A DNA stretch of 35,097 nt from Deltaproteobacteria bacterium (GTDB lineage: Bacteria > UBA10199 > JACPAL01 > JAHFST01). Under the pieces are notes generated by a model. The model was given only the letters and a program-made list of their open reading frames with translations. It ran no database searches and was not told where the DNA came from. A program made the translations under genes and the position numbers. Shown here piece by piece: positions 8,816 to 34,982 of this stretch. Within the stretch, counting starts at the first letter, position 1, and every line of letters starts with the position of its first letter. The DNA is taken from positions 1-35,097 of the forward strand of contig JAHFST010000019.1 in assembly GCA_023265625.1 (NCBI GenBank), in the 5' to 3' direction.

Positions 8816-10543
8816 ATGTTTCAAAAAATTCTAATTGCCAACCGAGGTGAAATCGCCGTCCGCATTATTCGGGCTTGTCGCGGGCTGGGGATTCGGACCG
8901 TGGCGGTTTATTCCGAGGTGGATCAGCCGGCCCTGTATGTGCAACAGGCCGATGAAAGTTATCCGTTGGGCGACCCTCAGCCCCAGCAGAGTTACCTCAA
9001 TATTCCAAAACTGATCGAAGTGGCGCGCCAGGCTAAGGTGGATGCGATTCATCCGGGGTATGGTTTTTTGTCCGAGAACGCCCGTTTTGCGGAGGCCTGC
9101 GCCCAGGCTGGGATTGTTTTTATCGGGCCGACCCCTGCGGTGATCAAGCAGATGGGGGACAAGATTGGGGCCAGAAATATCCTTAAAAATAAAGGTTTTC
9201 CACTCGTGCCTGGCACCAATCAACCGTTGGTTGCGGTGGGGGAGGCGGTGCAATTTGCGGCGGAGGCTGGGTATCCGGTATTGTTGAAGGCGGCCGCCGG
9301 TGGCGGCGGGAAGGGGATGCGGGTGGTGCAGCGGGCCGAGGATCTTCCAGCCGCCTTGGAAGGGTGTCAGCGCGAGGCGAAGTCGGCCTTTGGTGATGAT
9401 CGGGTTTTTTTGGAAAAATATTTGTTGGAACCGCGCCATGTGGAGATTCAGATCATTGCGGATCAACACGGCAACGTCCGACACCTCTTTGAGCGGGAAT
9501 GTTCGATCCAACGCCGTCATCAAAAAGTCATCGAAGAAACCCCCAGCCCCGCCCTGGATGAGACCCTGCGCCAGAAGATGGGGGAGGCAGCGGTTAAAAT
9601 CGCGCGGTTGATCGGTTATCAAAGCGTGGGGACGATTGAATTTATCTTGGATAAAAATCGTGATTTTTATTTTTTGGAGGTGAATACGCGTTTGCAGGTC
9701 GAGCATCCAATTACGGAGATGATTACGGGGGTTGATTTGGTGAAGGCGCAGATTCGAATCGCGGCGGGGGAAAAATTAGATGCGATTGTAGGGGCGTATT
9801 GCAATACGCCCCTACAGACCCGCGGCCATGCCATCGAATGCCGCATCTGCGCCGAAGACCCGGAAAATAATTTCCTCCCCTCCATCGGCAAGATCACCCA
9901 TTTGCGGGAACCGGCCGGTGACGGGGTGCGAGTGGATTCGGGGATCTTTGCGGGGTGGGAGATTCCAGTCGAGTATGATCCGATGCTGGCCAAGCTGATC
10001 GTCCATGCCCCCACCCGTCCACTCGCGATTCGTAAGATGCTCGAGGCATTGGGGCATTATGAGATTGATGGGGTGAAGACCAATATCCCTTTTTTGCGGG
10101 ACCTGTTGCGCCACCCGGAATTTTCCGCTGGGCAGACGGATACCGGGTTTATCCCGAGGAATTTTCCGGAATGGGTGCCGGGACGGTTTGATGGGGAGGA
10201 TCCGTTTAATCCGTGGCAGCGGGGGGATGGGTGGCGATTGGGTGGTACTGTAGGGGCGGCCCTATGTGGCCGCCCGGTCCGAGAGGGCAACCACATAGGG
10301 TTGCCCCTACCGAAACCCGTTCGTACCCCCAAACATGCCCTCACCGCCCCCATGCCCGGCAAGGTTATCAAAATTTCCGTGGTGGTGGGAGACACCGTTA
10401 AAGAAGGCGACCTCCTGGTCGTGATGGAGGCGATGAAAATGGAACATTCCATCCAAGCCAACCGCGCCGGGATCGTGAAGCAACTTTTTTTTCAGGTGGG
10501 AGACAAGGTGGGTATGGGGGAAAAATTGGTGGAGATAGCGTAA
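8816..10543 (+). CDS. liuD: Methylcrotonyl-CoA carboxylase alpha (biotin) subunit, BT domain missing
   Basis: The 575-residue protein starts with a biotin carboxylase domain (KILIANRGEIAVRIIRACRG at 4-23, the AAAGGGGKGMR ATP-loop, and EVNTRLQVEHPITE). It ends with a biotinyl domain from A511, whose biotin-accepting Lys is K541 in EAMKMEH. It would carboxylate biotin and pass it to the LiuB partner. MCC alpha subunits are normally about 650-670 residues because a BT domain sits between these parts. Here the sequence passes from DGWRLGG straight into a translated repeat (V479 to about 499) and then to the biotinyl domain. A second palindrome is translated in frame at about 325-334, in the loop before RGHAIECR, adding about five residues relative to AccC. 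The gene is intact as a frame; whether the enzyme assembles is open. Confidence 0.9.
   Translation: MFQKILIANRGEIAVRIIRACRGLGIRTVAVYSEVDQPALYVQQADESYPLGDPQPQQSYLNIPKLIEVARQAKVDAIHPGYGFLSENARFAEACAQAGIVFIGPTPAVIKQMGDKIGARNILKNKGFPLVPGTNQPLVAVGEAVQFAAEAGYPVLLKAAAGGGGKGMRVVQRAEDLPAALEGCQREAKSAFGDDRVFLEKYLLEPRHVEIQIIADQHGNVRHLFERECSIQRRHQKVIEETPSPALDETLRQKMGEAAVKIARLIGYQSVGTIEFILDKNRDFYFLEVNTRLQVEHPITEMITGVDLVKAQIRIAAGEKLDAIVGAYCNTPLQTRGHAIECRICAEDPENNFLPSIGKITHLREPAGDGVRVDSGIFAGWEIPVEYDPMLAKLIVHAPTRPLAIRKMLEALGHYEIDGVKTNIPFLRDLLRHPEFSAGQTDTGFIPRNFPEWVPGRFDGEDPFNPWQRGDGWRLGGTVGAALCGRPVREGNHIGLPLPKPVRTPKHALTAPMPGKVIKISVVVGDTVKEGDLLVVMEAMKMEHSIQANRAGIVKQLFFQVGDKVGMGEKLVEIA
9787..9816. repeat. GTAGGGG-family palindrome, inside liuD coding sequence
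   Basis: A perfect palindrome runs from GTAGGGGCGTATTG (9788-9801) into its complement (9802-9815), flanked by T and A that also pair. It is read in frame without creating a stop because TAG falls out of phase (GTA-GGG). It is one of six GTAGGGG loci in this window. Confidence 0.92.
10250..10310. repeat. Composite 61-bp GTAGGGG element inside liuD
   Basis: Two imperfect palindromic arms (GTAGGGGCGGCCCTATGTGG... and ...CCACATAGGGTTGCCCCTAC) flank a short GGTCCGAGA spacer. Read on the other strand, the element at 15152-15212 is the same in 59 of 61 positions. It is translated in frame in the linker where the BT domain would be expected. Confidence 0.93.
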
Positions 10544-26661: not shown

Positions 26662-27102
26662 TTAACTCGGAAGAGAAGAGTCAGGTAAACACCACCAGGC
26701 CCCGGCAGTCACGCTGGTGGTGGCTAGATTGACGTCTGTTTGTAGTTGTCCGGTAGCGGCAATGAGTTCGTCCAGTTTTATTTGCACACTACGTGCTACG
26801 GTCCCGGCTAGTACAGGCCTTAGTTTGGTGGCCTCATCAATGGCTTGATCCATCAGTTGTTGCACCGCATCTAAGGCTGATGTTGGCTCGCTCCATTTGC
26901 GAGCCAGAATTTGTTTTAAGGCACCATCCAAAACCATATAGCGATCCGATGCCGCGTCGGCTGTGGGCAGGGCATTCCTATTTGCGTCGCCGAGTGTTGT
27001 AGCAAGAGTCACACACGCGGCAGCCGTCTGGAATCTGAATTGGATCATCAGACCCTGGGCGCGATTCAGATAGTTCGGCACGTTTAAAGGGGGCATACAC
27101 AT
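26662..27102 (-). CDS. Small helical protein of unknown function, divergent from the giant gene
   Basis: The 146-residue product is mostly amphipathic helix (for example ALDAVQQLMDQAIDEATKL and VQIKLDELIAATGQLQTDVN), with no signal peptide or known motif. GAGG lies 7 bases before the ATG, a good ribosome site, which supports this start and that the gene is real. It ends 3 bases from trpC on the opposite strand. It shares a 150-base intergenic region, with matching inverted half-sites, with the 1859-residue gene. A role as partner or modulator of that protein is conceivable but rests only on position. Confidence 0.6.
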   Translation of the reverse strand: MCMPPLNVPNYLNRAQGLMIQFRFQTAAACVTLATTLGDANRNALPTADAASDRYMVLDGALKQILARKWSEPTSALDAVQQLMDQAIDEATKLRPVLAGTVARSVQIKLDELIAATGQLQTDVNLATTSVTAGAWWCLPDSSLPS

Positions 27103-27252: not shown

Positions 27253-30200
27253 ATGCTGGTGGGATTTCGTGGCACTTTACCGATGACCCTGGAGGCCCTC
27301 GAGATCCATTCTTGGAGAGGTCTCCCGGCAGGGGACGGGGTGGAGGGGTTTCGGCTCTGTTCCATCGGAGGGGGTGGGGGAGGCGGAGGAGGGACGGGTA
27401 TTGATCGGTTCGGTCCGCTGCCCCGGAAGTTCCTATTTTTCTCCGGTAACCCTCCGATGGGGTGGGCAGAGGCCCACCCGGAGGTGCAAGAGGCGCATCG
27501 CAGGATCGTTGCTGGATTGGGGGAAAGTTACGCGGCCTTGGCTCTCCATCCGGGGATTGTCCATCGTATCGACGAATTTTTGGCCTTTGCGGCGCGCCGG
27601 CGGGGTCCTTTGGCAGCCGAAAAACTGTTGGAGACCTACTCTCGAATGCTGGGTACGGTGACCCTCTACCGGAGCCTTCAGTTGTACGCCGATGAGGCCG
27701 CGGTTATCACCTCGGAGGGGATGTCCTCCAACTATCTTCGGGAATTTGGCACGGCCGATGAGCTGACCGCTTTCTTCATGAGGGAAGGGGTCACGCAGCC
27801 GGTCCAAGACCACCTGGGGGAGAGGCTCCGGCACTCTCCGTTCCTCTCGGGTACCGAGCGGGCGGAGTACGCGGCGTTTATTTACTACGTGGGAAAGATA
27901 TTCCGAGGCGCCAAGCCCAACTACATTTACCGACTGACGGTGCCGGTTTTGCACACGATCCCGGTGCCGGGGGCGAATGAGACCCTGGTGTTCGGGGCCG
28001 TCGCGCCAGACCAACTGAGCCTGGAGCGGGTTGATACCACGGCCGTGGAACATGCCGCGGGTTTGATCACCGATGAGGAGTATCGGACACGGGTGAGATC
28101 CCTGGCCGCGGCCTATCAGGGAGTAGACCTCACCGAGGTGAGCCCTGTTGCCGATCCGCAAGGGGGTTCCGCTGCCGCCTCTGTCATGGGGGTGCTTGGC
28201 CAATTTCTCCCCGACATTGGTTCAGTGATCGAGGGGATTCTTCCTTCCGGCGCGTCGGTCTTGGTCGACATGATGAAAGATCTGGTAACGGCATCGGCCG
28301 CCGGTCGAAAGGACGAACCCGCTGTCCCGACCCGGACGGTACCCTCCCTGGCACTCAGACTGCGGCCAACGACCGTCCCGTCGGCGGAGCCCGTCGACAT
28401 ACAAAAGAACTCGGGCCCCTTTGCCGACCGAGTTGAGATTGCGGGGCGGTTCGTGGAATTTCTGTACCAGTTGGAGAAGTCGGGAGACCAGGAGCTCCTC
28501 GAGCATTGGGAGAAGTATCTCGACTATGCCGAACTGGCCGATCCCGAAAGCGCGGCCCGGGTTTACGGACGCCTGCTGGACCTGGCACGGGATGTGAAAC
28601 GGATGGTCCGGGGTTTCTCCGGAGAGGATTATGGTCTTAAAAAAGAGGACTATGTGGCGCAGAGGCGCTGGCGGCTCGCGGTTTCGCTGCATCAGTCGGG
28701 TTATCTGGACGAGTCGGATGAGATGTTCCGGTTGACGACCCCCAGGGGAAAACTCGATTTTGCCAAGGCGGTCAAGGCCGGGTTGCCGGATAGGGTGCGT
28801 GACACGATCGTGGCGTTGTCAGTGGGGGATGCGGCGCTGTTTCAACAAGCCAGGTCCTCCAACCACGAACCCGGTCACAATATGTGGTGTTCCGCGGCGG
28901 ATCCTCATCGGGATTTGCTCTCCGCCTTGATCGAGGTGGCAGAGGCGATGGCTCCGGCGGACACGCCCGCGGCATGGTTGTTGAAAACGATGCACGAGGG
29001 GATCGATCGGGTGCTGGTGTTTCAGGGCTGTTCCTTGCTGAAGGTTTTTGAGACATTGGAAAAATGCCTCGCTTCTCCCCCGCTGTTCCGCCCCGTGATC
29101 CGGAGGATCATCGGGGATGACGCCATTGACACCAGGACAAAAGTGAAACTTCTGGCCCACGCCTCATCCCATCTTCCTCCCGACCTGGCCGATGGGGAAA
29201 GGGAGGCCTTGGCAGAGGCCTATCTCGATGTTGTGGCACGCGAGGAAACCAGACTTCGCGACAGGGGGTTCCATGAGGACAATTTTTACCGTCCGGAAGG
29301 GGAAGAGGAGCTGGCTGCTCCCCCTGATTTTTCTCATTGTCACTTTTACTGGGAGCACACCACTCGGGCCGCCGCTCTCTTGCTCGGGTGCGCCGATCCA
29401 AGGCTCAAGGGACGCGGGCTGCGGATGCTGGATGGTCTGACGGAGGCGGCCCATCCCTTCGCCAATCAATTCAAGCACGCCGACCCCCGGATCGATATTT
29501 TTTGTGACGAGCATCGCACCTTTCGTCCCTCCCTTTGGAAGGGGATCGCCTTGGTCCGTGAGGTCGACGCGGCCCCTCCCGGGCAACGGGAGCGGATGTT
29601 GCGGCAGGCCAGTTCCTTGATCCCGAAGCCCGGGGATGGCAAGGAGGAGGATCTTGTGGCCCTCCACGGCCTGATCGATCTGGCCCGCCAGACGACACGC
29701 TATGGGTTCGGAGGGTCCTCCGGAAGGGTTCTTGAGACCATCAACATGGTTCCCCTCCATGTCCCCGATCATGGCGTTGTGAGATGGGATGACAATGTCC
29801 GATTGCGAGAGGAGTGGGACAAACTCACCAGGCACGCCCACTTTCAATCCGGGTTCCTCTCGGCTGTGCAAGGCAGCGCGGCGGCACTAGGGCACTGGCT
29901 TGATTCCCTGCAGAGCAGCGAGGATCAGGGGCGGCCTTTTTTCAGGCTGGAGGATTTGATCGCAGCGATCGAATTTTTTGAACAGGCCTCCGCTTTGTTG
30001 GGCGTCACAGAGAGCGCCGGGGTCGTGATGAGGCTTGGCCGGATTGCCGTCGAGCACCATGTCGCCTCCGTGGGGGGAAGGGGGGAAGATCGATTGATCC
30101 TGAGTGAGCACTGGGCCCCCTTGGTCAAGACCTTTCGGAACGAATCGCTCCCCTTGAGCGCGGCCCAGCGGGACGAGTTCTTTGCCTACCTGATCGAGCA

Positions 30201-32832
30201 GGCCACCCCCCGGAAGGGATTGACCCGGGCGGGGGTGGTGACCGATCCGGAAAAACTCTGGGATGGTTTCAAGCTGCTCGATTTTGTCCTTGGCAACCGA
30301 CAGACGCCCCGGGCGGAGCGGCTCCTGCTGGAGCGATTGGCGGATGTGGCACGCGGGGTTTATTGCAATCGCGCCGACCCTCGTTTTGTCGGAGTCATCA
30401 AGGGCTTGCACTGGGTCTTCAACCGTGTGGCGCCGAGCGGTCTCCTGGATGCCGCCCTCGTACCGGTTCTGAAAGGTCTGAAGTCGGAGGTTGAGTATGC
30501 GCAGGCCGTGGCACGCCTCGCCCTGTTTCGAGAAGGGGATATTTTGAAAATCGACCGTGCCGAGGTGGAGTCCGCCTGTGCCCTGGCCGTTTCACGGGAA
30601 GATTTAGTAATGCTCAGGCATGTTCAGAAGAAACTGCAAGTCCTCATCACCCAGGAGATGGACCAGGCGCCCGGGCGGTCGGATAGGACATGGGTCAAGT
30701 CGTGCCTCTCTGTGGAGGGAACCCTCCTGGAGAGAATTTATACGTATTGGAGGGAGGCCTTGCCGAGTCCCAACCGGGCCTTCTGCAACCTTTTGCTGGA
30801 GACCTGGCTGGCAACGTCCGGCAGGGAGGAGACCGATCGCAAGAAGATTTTGCTCTACCGGGCCTTGGCCGATGCGCAGGTCCCCCTGGAGGCCAAGCGA
30901 CAGATTTTTTCCCAACTCTCCGAGACGGAAGATGTCTCCCCTTATGCCAAAACAAAGTGGGAACAGGTGGTGCAGGAAGGAGGGGCAGGGCGTGAGATGC
31001 TTTTTTATGAGGTCTTTAGCCCGGTCCTGGGGAGGAGCTCTTACTCCCTTGATGCGGGAGAGATAGCGATTCAGTTAACCACTGACCTGATGCTGGCACT
31101 CGTCTTTGAGAGGATCCCCTTTGATTTCGACCGCGAGGGACTGATCAGCCGTTACGCCCATCACAAGAAGAAAGTGTTCAAGATCGATGCCCACGATCCG
31201 GAGCAGTGGCTTTTTCTGGTCGCCCTGTCGTCCCACCCGAGGGGTGAGTTGAACAACCTCTTCACCCTCTTGGCCAGCCGCTCTTTTGGGGTAAACTATT
31301 TCTCTCGGCGTCAGGACCGGGACGATCCGACCCACTATTTACACGTCTGGCCCCAGGTCCAGGAGCGGGCCAGGGCCCTGTTGCCGGGCCCCCTTCTCGA
31401 GGGATACTTCGAGGAACGTCTCAGGGTAGAGGACCCCTTGGCCCATTTGAACGACGGGCTGGTCTTTTCGTCACGCCCGGGGGTGGAAGAGGCGCTACTC
31501 CTGGAGATGCCACGATTTTTTAATGTTGTTGAAGCGGCCTTGGACCGTGCCTGGGGCTTCACTCACTCACTCCCCCCAGCCCTGACGCGCATTACCACAG
31601 CACGAGGGGGGAGGTTGACCGATTTTCTGGTCAGCCGGCTCTTCGCCAGGATGGAGTCCGGTCGGCAGCAGCGGCTCTTGTCAAAGATCGAGGCCCTGCC
31701 TGCGGATCGGGAAGGGGAGGTCCTCGGGATTTTTTTTAAGGATACCGGTTTGGAGAAGGCAGGACAGACCTTGAGCTATTGGCCAGAAGTCCCCGAACCG
31801 GTGCAAAAAGATCTGCGTCCCCTACAAGACCGGGTTCCTCCCACCCATTTTGCCGTAGTCGTCAACTTCCTGAAAAAGGAGTTTGGGATAGCTGAGGATC
31901 ATGAGTTGATCCAAAATCTCAGGGTCTATCAGGAACAGGATGAGGCGTTGTTGGGTTCCGGGACGATCGGGGAATGCTATCGGTCCCGCCTGACGATCGA
32001 GGGAAGGGTTGAGGAGGTGGTGATCAAGGTGATTGTCACCTCGAAAGAAGAAAAGTTACGCAAGAGCCTGGCCGACGCCCGCCTTGTGCATTATCTTTTG
32101 GGACTTTACGAAGATGAGCCGGAAGGTTCCCCCCATTTCATCCCGCATCGGGTCCAGGCCCGGCGTCTGATGGATTTTATGATCCGAATGGTGGAGCGGG
32201 AGCTGGACCTGACGGTGGAGCGGGACAACGCCGATCGCATCCGGCCGGCGGCGACCGATCCGATCATCGGGATGCCGCACTTCGTGCCGGGCTGGACCAG
32301 GCCGAAGGCGGCGGTGCAGACCTATGTGCGGGGTGTCCGGTTGGATGAGATTGAGGACAAGGGACTCCGCGAGGAGGCCGTCCGCCGTGTGCGCAATTTC
32401 CTCCTCTCCCAGATGGTGATCGGGCACTTTCATTCCGACCTCCAGCCGGGCAACATCCGTGTGGAACTGGAGGACGAAGGCCGGGCGATTCGCAGGGTTT
32501 GGGTGTTGGATTTTGGCCAAGTGGGATCGATGACCCACGCGGAACGGGCGACCCTCATGGGCCTGCTCCCACCTATCATGGAGAGGGACCCGTCCGGGAC
32601 GGTCCGGATCCTGGAGGCCATGCAGGAGGAGGCGGTTCCCGCATCCGAGCGGTTGATCACTCAGGCCCAAGCAATCCTGGCCCGCTGGGACGGGGACCCG
32701 GAACATCTTTTTCCCGTCGTCCTGGAGCTGTTTGACGCCTCTCACGAATCCAATCTCCTGTTCGCCTTTCCCTTTCTCCAAGCCCTCAAGGGCCTCACCA
32801 CGTTTGAAGCCCCGGTTCGATTGATGTTGTAA
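27253..32832 (+). CDS. Giant protein: ADP-ribosyltransferase-like N-terminal region and UbiB/ABC1-like kinase C-terminus
   Basis: The 1859-residue protein starts at an ATG preceded by AGGAG. Residues 39-47 are nine Gly in a row. Residues about 135-262 look like an ADP-ribosyltransferase fold: LYRS with R140, then SPFLSGTERAEYAAF (S199, T201; the S-T-S strand followed by a helix), then YIYRLTVPV and NETLVFGAVAPDQL with E243. Residues about 1560-1859 resemble UbiB/ABC1 atypical kinases: GSGTIGE (1568-1574), K1592 in VVIKVIV, ERELDLTVERDN (E1650, E1656), FHSDLQPGN (D1729, N1734) and LDFGQ (D1753). The usual HADxHPGN is altered and the KxGQ element is not seen. The 1300 residues between are helical and unknown. 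There is no signal peptide or membrane segment. The kinase call is firm, the transferase call tentative; the cellular role is unknown. Confidence 0.75.
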   Translation: MLVGFRGTLPMTLEALEIHSWRGLPAGDGVEGFRLCSIGGGGGGGGGTGIDRFGPLPRKFLFFSGNPPMGWAEAHPEVQEAHRRIVAGLGESYAALALHPGIVHRIDEFLAFAARRRGPLAAEKLLETYSRMLGTVTLYRSLQLYADEAAVITSEGMSSNYLREFGTADELTAFFMREGVTQPVQDHLGERLRHSPFLSGTERAEYAAFIYYVGKIFRGAKPNYIYRLTVPVLHTIPVPGANETLVFGAVAPDQLSLERVDTTAVEHAAGLITDEEYRTRVRSLAAAYQGVDLTEVSPVADPQGGSAAASVMGVLGQFLPDIGSVIEGILPSGASVLVDMMKDLVTASAAGRKDEPAVPTRTVPSLALRLRPTTVPSAEPVDIQKNSGPFADRVEIAGRFVEFLYQLEKSGDQELLEHWEKYLDYAELADPESAARVYGRLLDLARDVKRMVRGFSGEDYGLKKEDYVAQRRWRLAVSLHQSGYLDESDEMFRLTTPRGKLDFAKAVKAGLPDRVRDTIVALSVGDAALFQQARSSNHEPGHNMWCSAADPHRDLLSALIEVAEAMAPADTPAAWLLKTMHEGIDRVLVFQGCSLLKVFETLEKCLASPPLFRPVIRRIIGDDAIDTRTKVKLLAHASSHLPPDLADGEREALAEAYLDVVAREETRLRDRGFHEDNFYRPEGEEELAAPPDFSHCHFYWEHTTRAAALLLGCADPRLKGRGLRMLDGLTEAAHPFANQFKHADPRIDIFCDEHRTFRPSLWKGIALVREVDAAPPGQRERMLRQASSLIPKPGDGKEEDLVALHGLIDLARQTTRYGFGGSSGRVLETINMVPLHVPDHGVVRWDDNVRLREEWDKLTRHAHFQSGFLSAVQGSAAALGHWLDSLQSSEDQGRPFFRLEDLIAAIEFFEQASALLGVTESAGVVMRLGRIAVEHHVASVGGRGEDRLILSEHWAPLVKTFRNESLPLSAAQRDEFFAYLIEQATPRKGLTRAGVVTDPEKLWDGFKLLDFVLGNRQTPRAERLLLERLADVARGVYCNRADPRFVGVIKGLHWVFNRVAPSGLLDAALVPVLKGLKSEVEYAQAVARLALFREGDILKIDRAEVESACALAVSREDLVMLRHVQKKLQVLITQEMDQAPGRSDRTWVKSCLSVEGTLLERIYTYWREALPSPNRAFCNLLLETWLATSGREETDRKKILLYRALADAQVPLEAKRQIFSQLSETEDVSPYAKTKWEQVVQEGGAGREMLFYEVFSPVLGRSSYSLDAGEIAIQLTTDLMLALVFERIPFDFDREGLISRYAHHKKKVFKIDAHDPEQWLFLVALSSHPRGELNNLFTLLASRSFGVNYFSRRQDRDDPTHYLHVWPQVQERARALLPGPLLEGYFEERLRVEDPLAHLNDGLVFSSRPGVEEALLLEMPRFFNVVEAALDRAWGFTHSLPPALTRITTARGGRLTDFLVSRLFARMESGRQQRLLSKIEALPADREGEVLGIFFKDTGLEKAGQTLSYWPEVPEPVQKDLRPLQDRVPPTHFAVVVNFLKKEFGIAEDHELIQNLRVYQEQDEALLGSGTIGECYRSRLTIEGRVEEVVIKVIVTSKEEKLRKSLADARLVHYLLGLYEDEPEGSPHFIPHRVQARRLMDFMIRMVERELDLTVERDNADRIRPAATDPIIGMPHFVPGWTRPKAAVQTYVRGVRLDEIEDKGLREEAVRRVRNFLLSQMVIGHFHSDLQPGNIRVELEDEGRAIRRVWVLDFGQVGSMTHAERATLMGLLPPIMERDPSGTVRILEAMQEEAVPASERLITQAQAILARWDGDPEHLFPVVLELFDASHESNLLFAFPFLQALKGLTTFEAPVRLML

Positions 32833-33311: not shown

Positions 33312-34982
33312 TTAGATCAGGTTGCTGTAATCAAGCTGGCCAATCGTGTCGTAAATGACTCGGTGCTCGATCCAGTCATCTTTATTAAGGGTAATTGAAA
33401 CGACATGATGCAGGGCCTCGTGTAATAGCGTATTGACTAGTTTTTCAAAATTGATGGTGGGGCCGCCTTGTTTAAGTACCGTTAAATCGATGCAGATGTC
33501 CTCTCCGGTAGGGCCGCAGCCACTCGAGATTCCAAACAGGAAATCCGAGGCGAAGAGGAAGGGGGAGATGGTTTTAACGGAAACATTTTGTCTGTAGGAT
33601 CCATCGAACAGCTGTGACCAGGCCATTGGTTCATAACCATAGAGGTCCAGATTTTCATACAGGGCTAACCTCGTTCCGTTTTGCGCCTTGTTGATCAGGC
33701 CGACGATATCGACTCCGTCGTCGATTTGCACGATTTCAGACTGGACATCATATAGCTCATGCAACCTCTTCATCATCATCGGCACAAGTTGAATGGCCTT
33801 CATTTTTGCCTCACTAAAAATAACTAGCTCATCTGTTGTCATCGGCAAATCGACGCCGACTAAGTTTTTCTTCGGGTACTCAATGGATGTCAATTTTGGC
33901 ATGATCGAAGGATTCAGGGCCGGGGCCGGGTTGTGGCGTGCCCAGAGGTATTCCATGGCATCCCCGATGCCGTCTCCGTCACTATCCCCATTTCTTGGAT
34001 CAAGACCCTGACCTATCTCGAAGAGATCGGTCAGGTAGTCGCCGTCTTGATCGGTGGTCTCAACAAGCTTCTTTAAGTCTTCCTGATAGGCGTAAATCAG
34101 CGGATTAGCAAAGAGGTCGGTAAAAACCAGTCCGTTATTTTTTATCATTGTGGCGTCCACCTCTTCATGAAACACGGGTCCAATCATGCCGCCGGCAAGA
34201 ATCCTCCTCGTCACTTTCACCTTGCCTGTATCCGGGCCAACATAGGGGAGATCTTCGGCGGCCCCGATCGGGATCGGACCCTCAATGTCTTTCAAACTGT
34301 TGATGACATGGGGGGCTACGAGCGGCCAGAATTCGTCCTCAATCAGCCGACTTATTCCGGAAGCAATGATTTTTTCCGGAGAGGTATCCGGCATCGGTAT
34401 AAAATAATCGGAGCCGTTGACAGCCAGTAAGATTCGACCCAGGGGGGAAAAGGTGGCCATGAGGTAAAGATCCTGGCCGTGATGATACCACTTGGTTGCC
34501 TGATTTTCTGTTCCTGCCAAGCAGCCTAACATGGCACTCTTTGAATAGCCGACTTTGGTCATGTTGGTCACATGCTCCGCCTTCAATCGCGCGAGACGGG
34601 CGAAAATGCCATAATAAGAAGAAGACATCAGGCAAAGGTCTTGGAACGCCCTATCCTGCAGGCACTCGATGACCCCCGACCCAACGTAGGAACAAATCAT
34701 GGAAGTGTTTGAAGTATCATCATGGACCACAAAGGACCGTCCCGGGTGACCAAAGATATTTTTTGGCATATTATTCAGCGTCGGGGAGATGTCTGATAAA
34801 TCCCATCGATTGGCCACCCACCCGTCCTTGTTAAACTTGACGACGGTTTTTTCACCCTTCTCCTCATAGTACGGCGGCAGGTAATCTTTCAGTTCAATCC
34901 CTTCCTTTTTGCAATCAAGACTCTTGGATTGGATGGGGTCTCCGAATCCGTCGCTGTCAAGATCCCTAAAGACCATTGTCAT
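33312..34982 (-). pseudogene. Ca-binding (thrombospondin type 3-like) protein with putative zinc-peptidase motif, apparently 5'-truncated
   Basis: The open frame gives 556 residues, but it looks like the remaining part of a longer secreted protein. It begins in the middle of a calcium-binding repeat (FRDLDSDGFGDP at 5-16), lacks any signal peptide, and the codon before the first ATG is a stop. A second repeat block at about 310-345 reads DQDGDYLTDLFE and DSDGDGIGDAMEYLW, typical of thrombospondin type 3-like loops. Near the C-terminus HEALHH (H521, E522, H525) matches the HExxH zinc-peptidase motif; H540 could be a third ligand. Such proteins are normally exported surface or secreted factors. 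The truncated side abuts tandem repeats (34992-35047). It may still be expressed with the gene at 32846. If translated from an upstream start outside the window it could be intact, but the in-frame stop argues against that. Confidence 0.55.

What the first reader, a model, noticed from the sequence alone, without database searches (positions are those of the whole stretch)
27253..32832. Giant protein joining an ADP-ribosyltransferase-like region with an atypical UbiB/ABC1-like kinase
The C-terminal 300 residues have clear ABC1-type kinase motifs, but with the hallmark HADxHPGN changed to HSDLQPGN, a GSGTIGE loop in place of the Ala-rich loop, and no KxGQ element. Near the N-terminus R140, SPFLSGT (195-201) and NETLVFG (E243) appear in the order and spacing of R-S-E ADP-ribosyltransferases. 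About 1300 residues of unknown helical sequence lie between. I know of no described protein with this pairing. It could be a self-contained signalling or effector system controlled with the small divergent gene.
Basis: partly seen in the sequence, partly recalled or inferred. Interest (0 to 1): 0.78.

Follow-up and report, generated by a model that had tools for sequence, protein, structure and literature searches.

The report
Giant solenoid protein with ABC1-type kinase
A single 1,859-residue bacterial protein carries, at its tail, a relative of the kinase-like enzymes that help make coenzyme Q, joined to a long helical scaffold found in one group of uncultured bacteria; its relatives carry a zinc-protease-like domain at the head, where this one carries a different, still unidentified domain.

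Summary
The ORF at 27253-32832 is real, complete and a single gene. Its C-terminus is an ABC1/UbiB-type kinase-like domain (Pfam ABC1, E=3e-20). The residue matching COQ8A Ala339 is Gly1570, and Gly is invariant in 12 aligned family sequences; in COQ8A, A339G is the published change that switches on ATP preference and autophosphorylation. The protein is not an orphan: 13 of 46 held genomes of its class encode giant ABC1-tailed proteins, and a tree joins eight of their kinase domains, this one included, in a clade apart from ordinary UbiB. In all 11 genomes where a relative's N-terminus is readable it is an HExxH zinc-peptidase-like domain (three resemble M48). The window protein, sister to a peptidase-bearing one, has a different N-terminus, with homology starting only near residue 371. 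That this N-terminus is an ADP-ribosyltransferase is unproven: no profile, homologue or usable structure model supports it, and loose R-S-E order arises in 16% of shuffles. Verdict: real, lineage-restricted variant of a known kinase-like family with an exchanged N-terminal module; the ART reading stays open. The proposed partner gene is not conserved.

The parts
27253..32832 (+). giant protein, 1859 aa, single ORF
   Evidence: the ORF listing; AGGAG before ATG and GC3 along the ORF
27253..28362 (+). residues 1-370: N-terminal region without any detectable homologue; stands where the relatives have a zinc-peptidase-like region
   Evidence: no hits; homology to relatives begins near residue 371; hhalign against the relatives' peptidase region probability 0.1-0.2%
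27604..28062 (+). residues 118-270: candidate ADP-ribosyltransferase-like stretch (YRSL 139, SPFLSGT 195, NETLVFG 242); unproven
   Evidence: positions; structure models not usable
28363..31572 (+). residues 371-1440: helical, solenoid-like middle, homologous to the giants of G009 and G036
   Evidence: tblastn 23-33% identity; genome search E=1.6e-37 and 1.6e-35 for residues 900-1502
31753..31842 (+). KxGQ element and following helix, residues 1501-1530
   Evidence: A1 alignment invariant K56/Q59; same place as KVGQ of own UbiB
31822..32601 (+). ABC1/UbiB-type kinase-like domain
   Evidence: Pfam PF03109 3e-20, 5.6e-22 in genome search; bacterial ABC1, COQ8B and COQ8A structures are the best PDB matches of the family profile
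31954..31974 (+). GSGTIGE nucleotide loop (1568-1574); Gly1570 takes the place of COQ8A Ala339
   Evidence: A1 and A3 invariant Gly
32431..32454 (+). HSDLQPGN catalytic loop (1727-1734), D1729 and N1734 invariant
26662..27102 (-). small divergent gene, 146 aa; not part of a conserved system
   Evidence: no relatives in class; not next to other giants

Best explanation
It is a member of a family of giant, apparently soluble proteins found in one class of uncultured bacteria: an exchangeable N-terminal module, a long helical solenoid-like middle, and a C-terminal ABC1/UbiB-type kinase-like domain. Shown by sequence: the architecture, the clade, the kinase motifs, and the different module here in place of the relatives' HExxH peptidase-like module. 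Inferred: the kinase-like domain binds ATP and, because the inhibitory Ala of UbiB proteins is Gly here, turns over ATP or autophosphorylates; the solenoid binds a partner; the ATP-dependent change switches the N-terminal output module. In relatives the output would be proteolysis; here it is a different activity, possibly ADP-ribosylation.
For: Pfam ABC1 3e-20; ATP-site residues kept: K1592, E1650, E1656, D1729, N1734, D1753. Gly at the Ala339 position invariant in the 12 rows of A3, whereas the own UbiB keeps ASAS. A339G in ADCK3/COQ8A reverses ADP preference and allows autophosphorylation (PMC4718504). Thirteen genomes of the class with such giants; clade support 99/98 for eight giants and 97/93 for window plus G009, apart from UbiB. 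HExxH N-termini in all readable relatives, M48 hits 7e-10, 6e-7 and 0.011. No hydrophobic segment strong enough for a membrane helix at the threshold used. An ordinary UbiB is encoded elsewhere, so quinone synthesis need not depend on this protein.
Against: KxGQ, which in COQ8A closes the substrate site, is kept, so protein-kinase activity may still be blocked. No experiment and no usable structure. No conserved neighbour tells the pathway. The fold of the N-terminal module is unknown, and it could be non-catalytic.
Confidence: 0.45

Rival explanations
1. One reading: residues 118-270 are an R-S-E ADP-ribosyltransferase and the protein is an ADP-ribosylating enzyme controlled by a UbiB-like kinase.
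For: TLYRSL, SPFLSGT, YIYRLTVP and NETLVFGAVAP lie in the order and with the Ser-to-Glu distance (about 44) usual in ART folds (own reading and knowledge, residues); a strict version of the pattern occurs only here among 15 related proteins, but it was drawn up after seeing the sequence; strands predicted in the second half of the stretch in both weak models.
Against: No profile hit of any kind; no homologue in the class or in 979 sampled genomes of three other phyla, plasmids, phages or viral contigs; the loose motif is met by 16% of shuffles.
Confidence: 0.35
2. The N-terminal region is a degenerate, inactive form of the relatives' zinc peptidase, and the protein is a kinase-solenoid scaffold only.
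For: Same place in the protein; relatives such as G027 have NETLSFG as a likely metal-ligand motif, which looks like NETLVFG here.
Against: No HExxH anywhere in residues 1-370; profile comparison gives probability about 0.1%; nothing before residue 371 aligns to relatives by tblastn; the NETLVFG stretch is predicted as strand here, although in weak models.
Confidence: 0.12
3. A secreted or injected effector that acts on other cells, combining a kinase and a second enzyme.
For: Large multi-enzyme proteins with variable N-terminal enzymes are common among effectors (general knowledge only).
Against: No strong hydrophobic segment; no secretion genes recognised beside it; no conserved immunity-like neighbour.
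Confidence: 0.15
4. An intracellular defence-type protein: the solenoid senses an invader and ATP turnover switches an exchangeable N-terminal effector, by analogy with STAND-type defence proteins.
For: Different N-terminal modules in front of a conserved sensor-like and ATP-binding part.
Against: No PADLOC match; no defence genes recognised beside it; a single case of an exchange within the clade.
Confidence: 0.15

Closest known systems
UbiB/COQ8/ABC1 kinase-like family (Pfam PF03109; structures 5yjz, 7cy2, 4ped)
   Same: Kinase-like core, KxGQ, ExD, ATP-site residues
   Different: Gly instead of Ala in the nucleotide loop; joined to more than 1,000 residues of helical sequence; no clear membrane segment; 88.5 bits against a cut-off of 487.55 for the UbiB equivalog
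Giant HExxH-solenoid-ABC1 proteins of the same class (G009, G036, G027, G029, G031, G018, G008, G040; M48-like G044, G032, G025)
   Same: ABC1 tail; long helical middle (detectably homologous by sequence in G009 and G036)
   Different: Their N-terminal zinc-peptidase-like module is absent in the window protein
Peptidase family M48 (Pfam PF01435)
   Same: Matches the N-terminal module of G044, G032 and, weakly, G025
   Different: Not present in the window protein
ADP-ribosyltransferases (Pfam PF01129, PF03496)
   Same: Possible order of R, S, E and strands by eye
   Different: No profile match

Membership tests
ABC1/UbiB-type kinase-like superfamily | Pfam ABC1 above curated cut-off | tested here: met
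   72.8 bits against 22.9
ABC1/UbiB-type kinase-like superfamily | KxGQ motif | tested here: met
   K1502-A-G-Q1505
ABC1/UbiB-type kinase-like superfamily | Ala-rich loop (AAAS) | tested here: not met
   GSGT 1568-1571; Gly invariant in the giant family
ABC1/UbiB-type kinase-like superfamily | ExD motif and catalytic K, E, D, N, D | tested here: met
   E1650-L-D1652, K1592, E1656, D1729, N1734, D1753
UbiB (quinone biosynthesis orthologue) | NCBIfam TIGR01982 equivalog cut-off | tested here: not met
   88.5 bits against 487.55; separate UbiB in the genome
ADP-ribosyltransferase | profile match to an ART family | tested here: not met
ADP-ribosyltransferase | R-S-E residues in order in an ART fold | tested here: inconclusive
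   residues present, loose order met by 16% of shuffles, models of pLDDT 38.6 and 42.7
ADP-ribosyltransferase | NAD-dependent transfer activity | not testable with these tools
   needs purified protein
Zinc peptidase (HExxH) as in the relatives | HExxH and alignment to the relatives' module | tested here: not met
   no HExxH in residues 1-370, hhalign probability about 0.1%
Known anti-phage defence systems | PADLOC model match | tested here: not met

The most novel reading that the evidence does not exclude
A class of uncultured bacteria has built a modular giant in which a UbiB-type ATP-binding domain, naturally carrying the activating Gly, drives interchangeable N-terminal effector enzymes (zinc peptidase in most, ADP-ribosyltransferase in this one) through a solenoid sensor: a new signalling or defence architecture with no quinone role.
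Probability: 0.25. Interest if true: 0.8.

Novelty: new variant of a known kind. Interest (0 to 1): 0.52.

Why it matters
What UbiB-type kinase-like proteins phosphorylate or drive is a long-open question. A bacterial family that naturally has the Ala-to-Gly change known to awaken COQ8A, and that is tied in one chain to a candidate output enzyme and a scaffold, offers a place to test whether this fold can act as a protein kinase or ATP-driven switch outside quinone synthesis. The exchange of the N-terminal module suggests that the kinase-solenoid part is a reusable control unit.

Tried and rejected
Tried without result: homologue searches for the N-terminal stretch in class genomes (two weak hits at E 0.04 and 0.06; the DNA around the latter, reads by eye as an endonuclease-like YraN gene, from memory, not tested), in 195, 398 and 386 genomes of three other phyla, plasmids, phages and viral contigs; PDB sequences; NCBIfam and PHROGs at E up to 10; ART Pfam models on the own genome. 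AlphaFold on residues 60-300 and 118-272, single sequence because no homologue was found, gave pLDDT 38.6 and 42.7; Foldseek matches of the second were meaningless, best E 0.49. Rejected: the weak ABC1 hits in other long frames of the class as family members; the four that were read (G000 C32, G009 C33, G026, G001) are protein-kinase regulators with the kinase at the N-terminus. Rejected: a shared system with the small divergent gene. Two genome-contig scans brought only the G036 relative. Paper searches for UbiB with ART, M48 or domain fusion gave no description of this architecture; the library lacks most subscription papers.

Full report
Observation. The window is a whole contig (C18) of a 2.93-Mb genome of 37 contigs. 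The ORF at 27253-32832 is 1859 codons long with no stop, has AGGAG just before its ATG, and third-position G+C between 0.60 and 0.81 in 100-codon steps.

Kinase-like end. Pfam ABC1 matches residues 1524-1783 at 3e-20. A profile of seven related giants finds bacterial ABC1, COQ8B and COQ8A structures as its best PDB matches (4e-25 to 5e-18). NCBIfam's UbiB equivalog is hit at only 88.5 bits against a cut-off of 487.55, and the genome has an ordinary 552-aa UbiB elsewhere, so this is an ABC1-superfamily domain and not the UbiB orthologue. Residues 1501-1530 (EKAGQTLSYWPEVPEPVQKDLRPLQDRVPP) match the KVGQ region of the own UbiB, and K1502 and Q1505 are invariant in seven giants. E1650-L-D1652 gives the ExD motif; K1592, E1656, D1729, N1734 and D1753 complete the ATP site. 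The Ala-rich loop is truly replaced: ASASLGQ in the own UbiB against GSGTIGE here, so Gly1570 stands where COQ8A has Ala339. Gly at this place is invariant in the 12 rows of A3, the M48-bearing giants included (GGGS); two further sequences cut off by contig ends (G023, second of G044) keep ASAS and RASA. In ADCK3/COQ8A, changing Ala339 to Gly reverses the preference for ADP and permits autophosphorylation, more so when KxGQ is removed (review PMC4718504; the primary paper was not held). Inference: this family is by nature in the awakened state at that residue but still has the KxGQ brake.

Family. A Pfam ABC1 search of the 46 held genomes of the class finds, besides ordinary UbiB, giant or contig-cut open frames with a C-terminal ABC1 domain in 13 genomes: G000, G008, G009, G018, G023, G025, G027, G029, G031, G032, G036, G040 and G044 (sequences). 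A kinase-domain tree places eight of them (window, G009, both of G036, G027, G029, G018, G031) in a clade with support 99/98, apart from 14 UbiB-size proteins, with window and G009 as sisters at 97/93; the M48-bearing G044 and G032 fall far outside on a long branch, and G008, G023 and the second of G044 are unsure long branches. So the M48-type giants may be a separate origin of a like architecture. With part of the solenoid alone (residues 900-1502), 385 genomes give strong matches only in G009 and G036 (1.6e-35, 1.6e-37) and one weak match outside the class (G307, 6.6e-4), so this solenoid is narrow in range or fast-changing. One relative's record is titled 'Deltaproteobacteria bacterium isolate co234_bin13'; I cannot name the class with certainty.

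N-terminal module. In every relative whose N-terminus is readable (G008, G009, G018, G025, G027, G029, G031, G032, G036, G040, G044) there is an HExxH motif followed downstream by a Glu in the pattern of zinc peptidases. M48 is recognised by Pfam in G044 (7.2e-10) and G032 (5.6e-7), below cut-off in G025 (0.011); the others match no Pfam peptidase family. The window protein has no HExxH in residues 1-370 and does not align to either set (hhalign probability 0.1-0.2%); similarity to G009 starts at residue 371. As its sister and the next relatives have the peptidase-like module, the simplest reading is that this lineage exchanged it. A misassembly at the junction cannot be excluded without reads.

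Is it an ADP-ribosyltransferase? By eye, TLYRSL (139), SPFLSGT (195), YIYRLTVP and NETLVFGAVAP (242) fall in the order of an ART fold, with a Ser-Glu distance near 44, which is ordinary for ARTs (own knowledge). But a loose R-S-E pattern occurs 113 times in 26.6 thousand residues of related proteins and in 16% of shuffles of this stretch; a stricter form is found only here but was drawn up after the fact. I put the ART reading at about 0.35.

Neighbourhood. The small divergent gene 26662-27102 has no relative in the class and nothing like it lies by the other giants; neighbours differ from genome to genome and no gene is seen beside the giants repeatedly. The upstream genes are trp genes. No PADLOC match.

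Mechanism. Most likely an ATP-dependent switch protein: the solenoid binds a partner, the ABC1 domain turns over ATP or autophosphorylates, and the N-terminal output module is turned on or off. Shown: architecture, clade, motifs, module difference. Inferred: everything about activity. Novelty: a new variant of a known kind (ABC1 kinase-like proteins), in an architecture for which I found no description in the held library.

Noticed in passing
window 33312-34982 (-): Neighbouring gene with Asp-rich calcium-binding-like repeats (DQDGDYLTDLFEIGQGLDPRNGDSDGDGIGDAMEYL) and a C-terminal LLHEALHHVV (HExxH) motif; possible zinc peptidase; may begin beyond the contig end.
   Followed up: no
L028 about 9807-9809 (G040): The G040 giant has one in-frame TAG between the solenoid and the kinase domain; the frame stays open after it with all kinase motifs.
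   Followed up: partly
L024 2894-4633 (G036) and L040 2-2656 (G044): Second ABC1-tailed proteins in two genomes, cut by contig ends; that of G044 keeps Ala in the nucleotide loop.
   Followed up: partly
N-termini of P0001-P0005, P0007, P0010, P0011 (loci L022, L023, L025, L026, L027, L028, L034, L035): An HExxH domain with a downstream [NDSH]-E-x-x-x-[FMH] motif that matches no Pfam family: a candidate undescribed zinc-peptidase family.
   Followed up: partly
L022 1218-5522 (G009): A long ORF that reads as a ribonucleotide reductase with an intein-like insertion.
   Followed up: no
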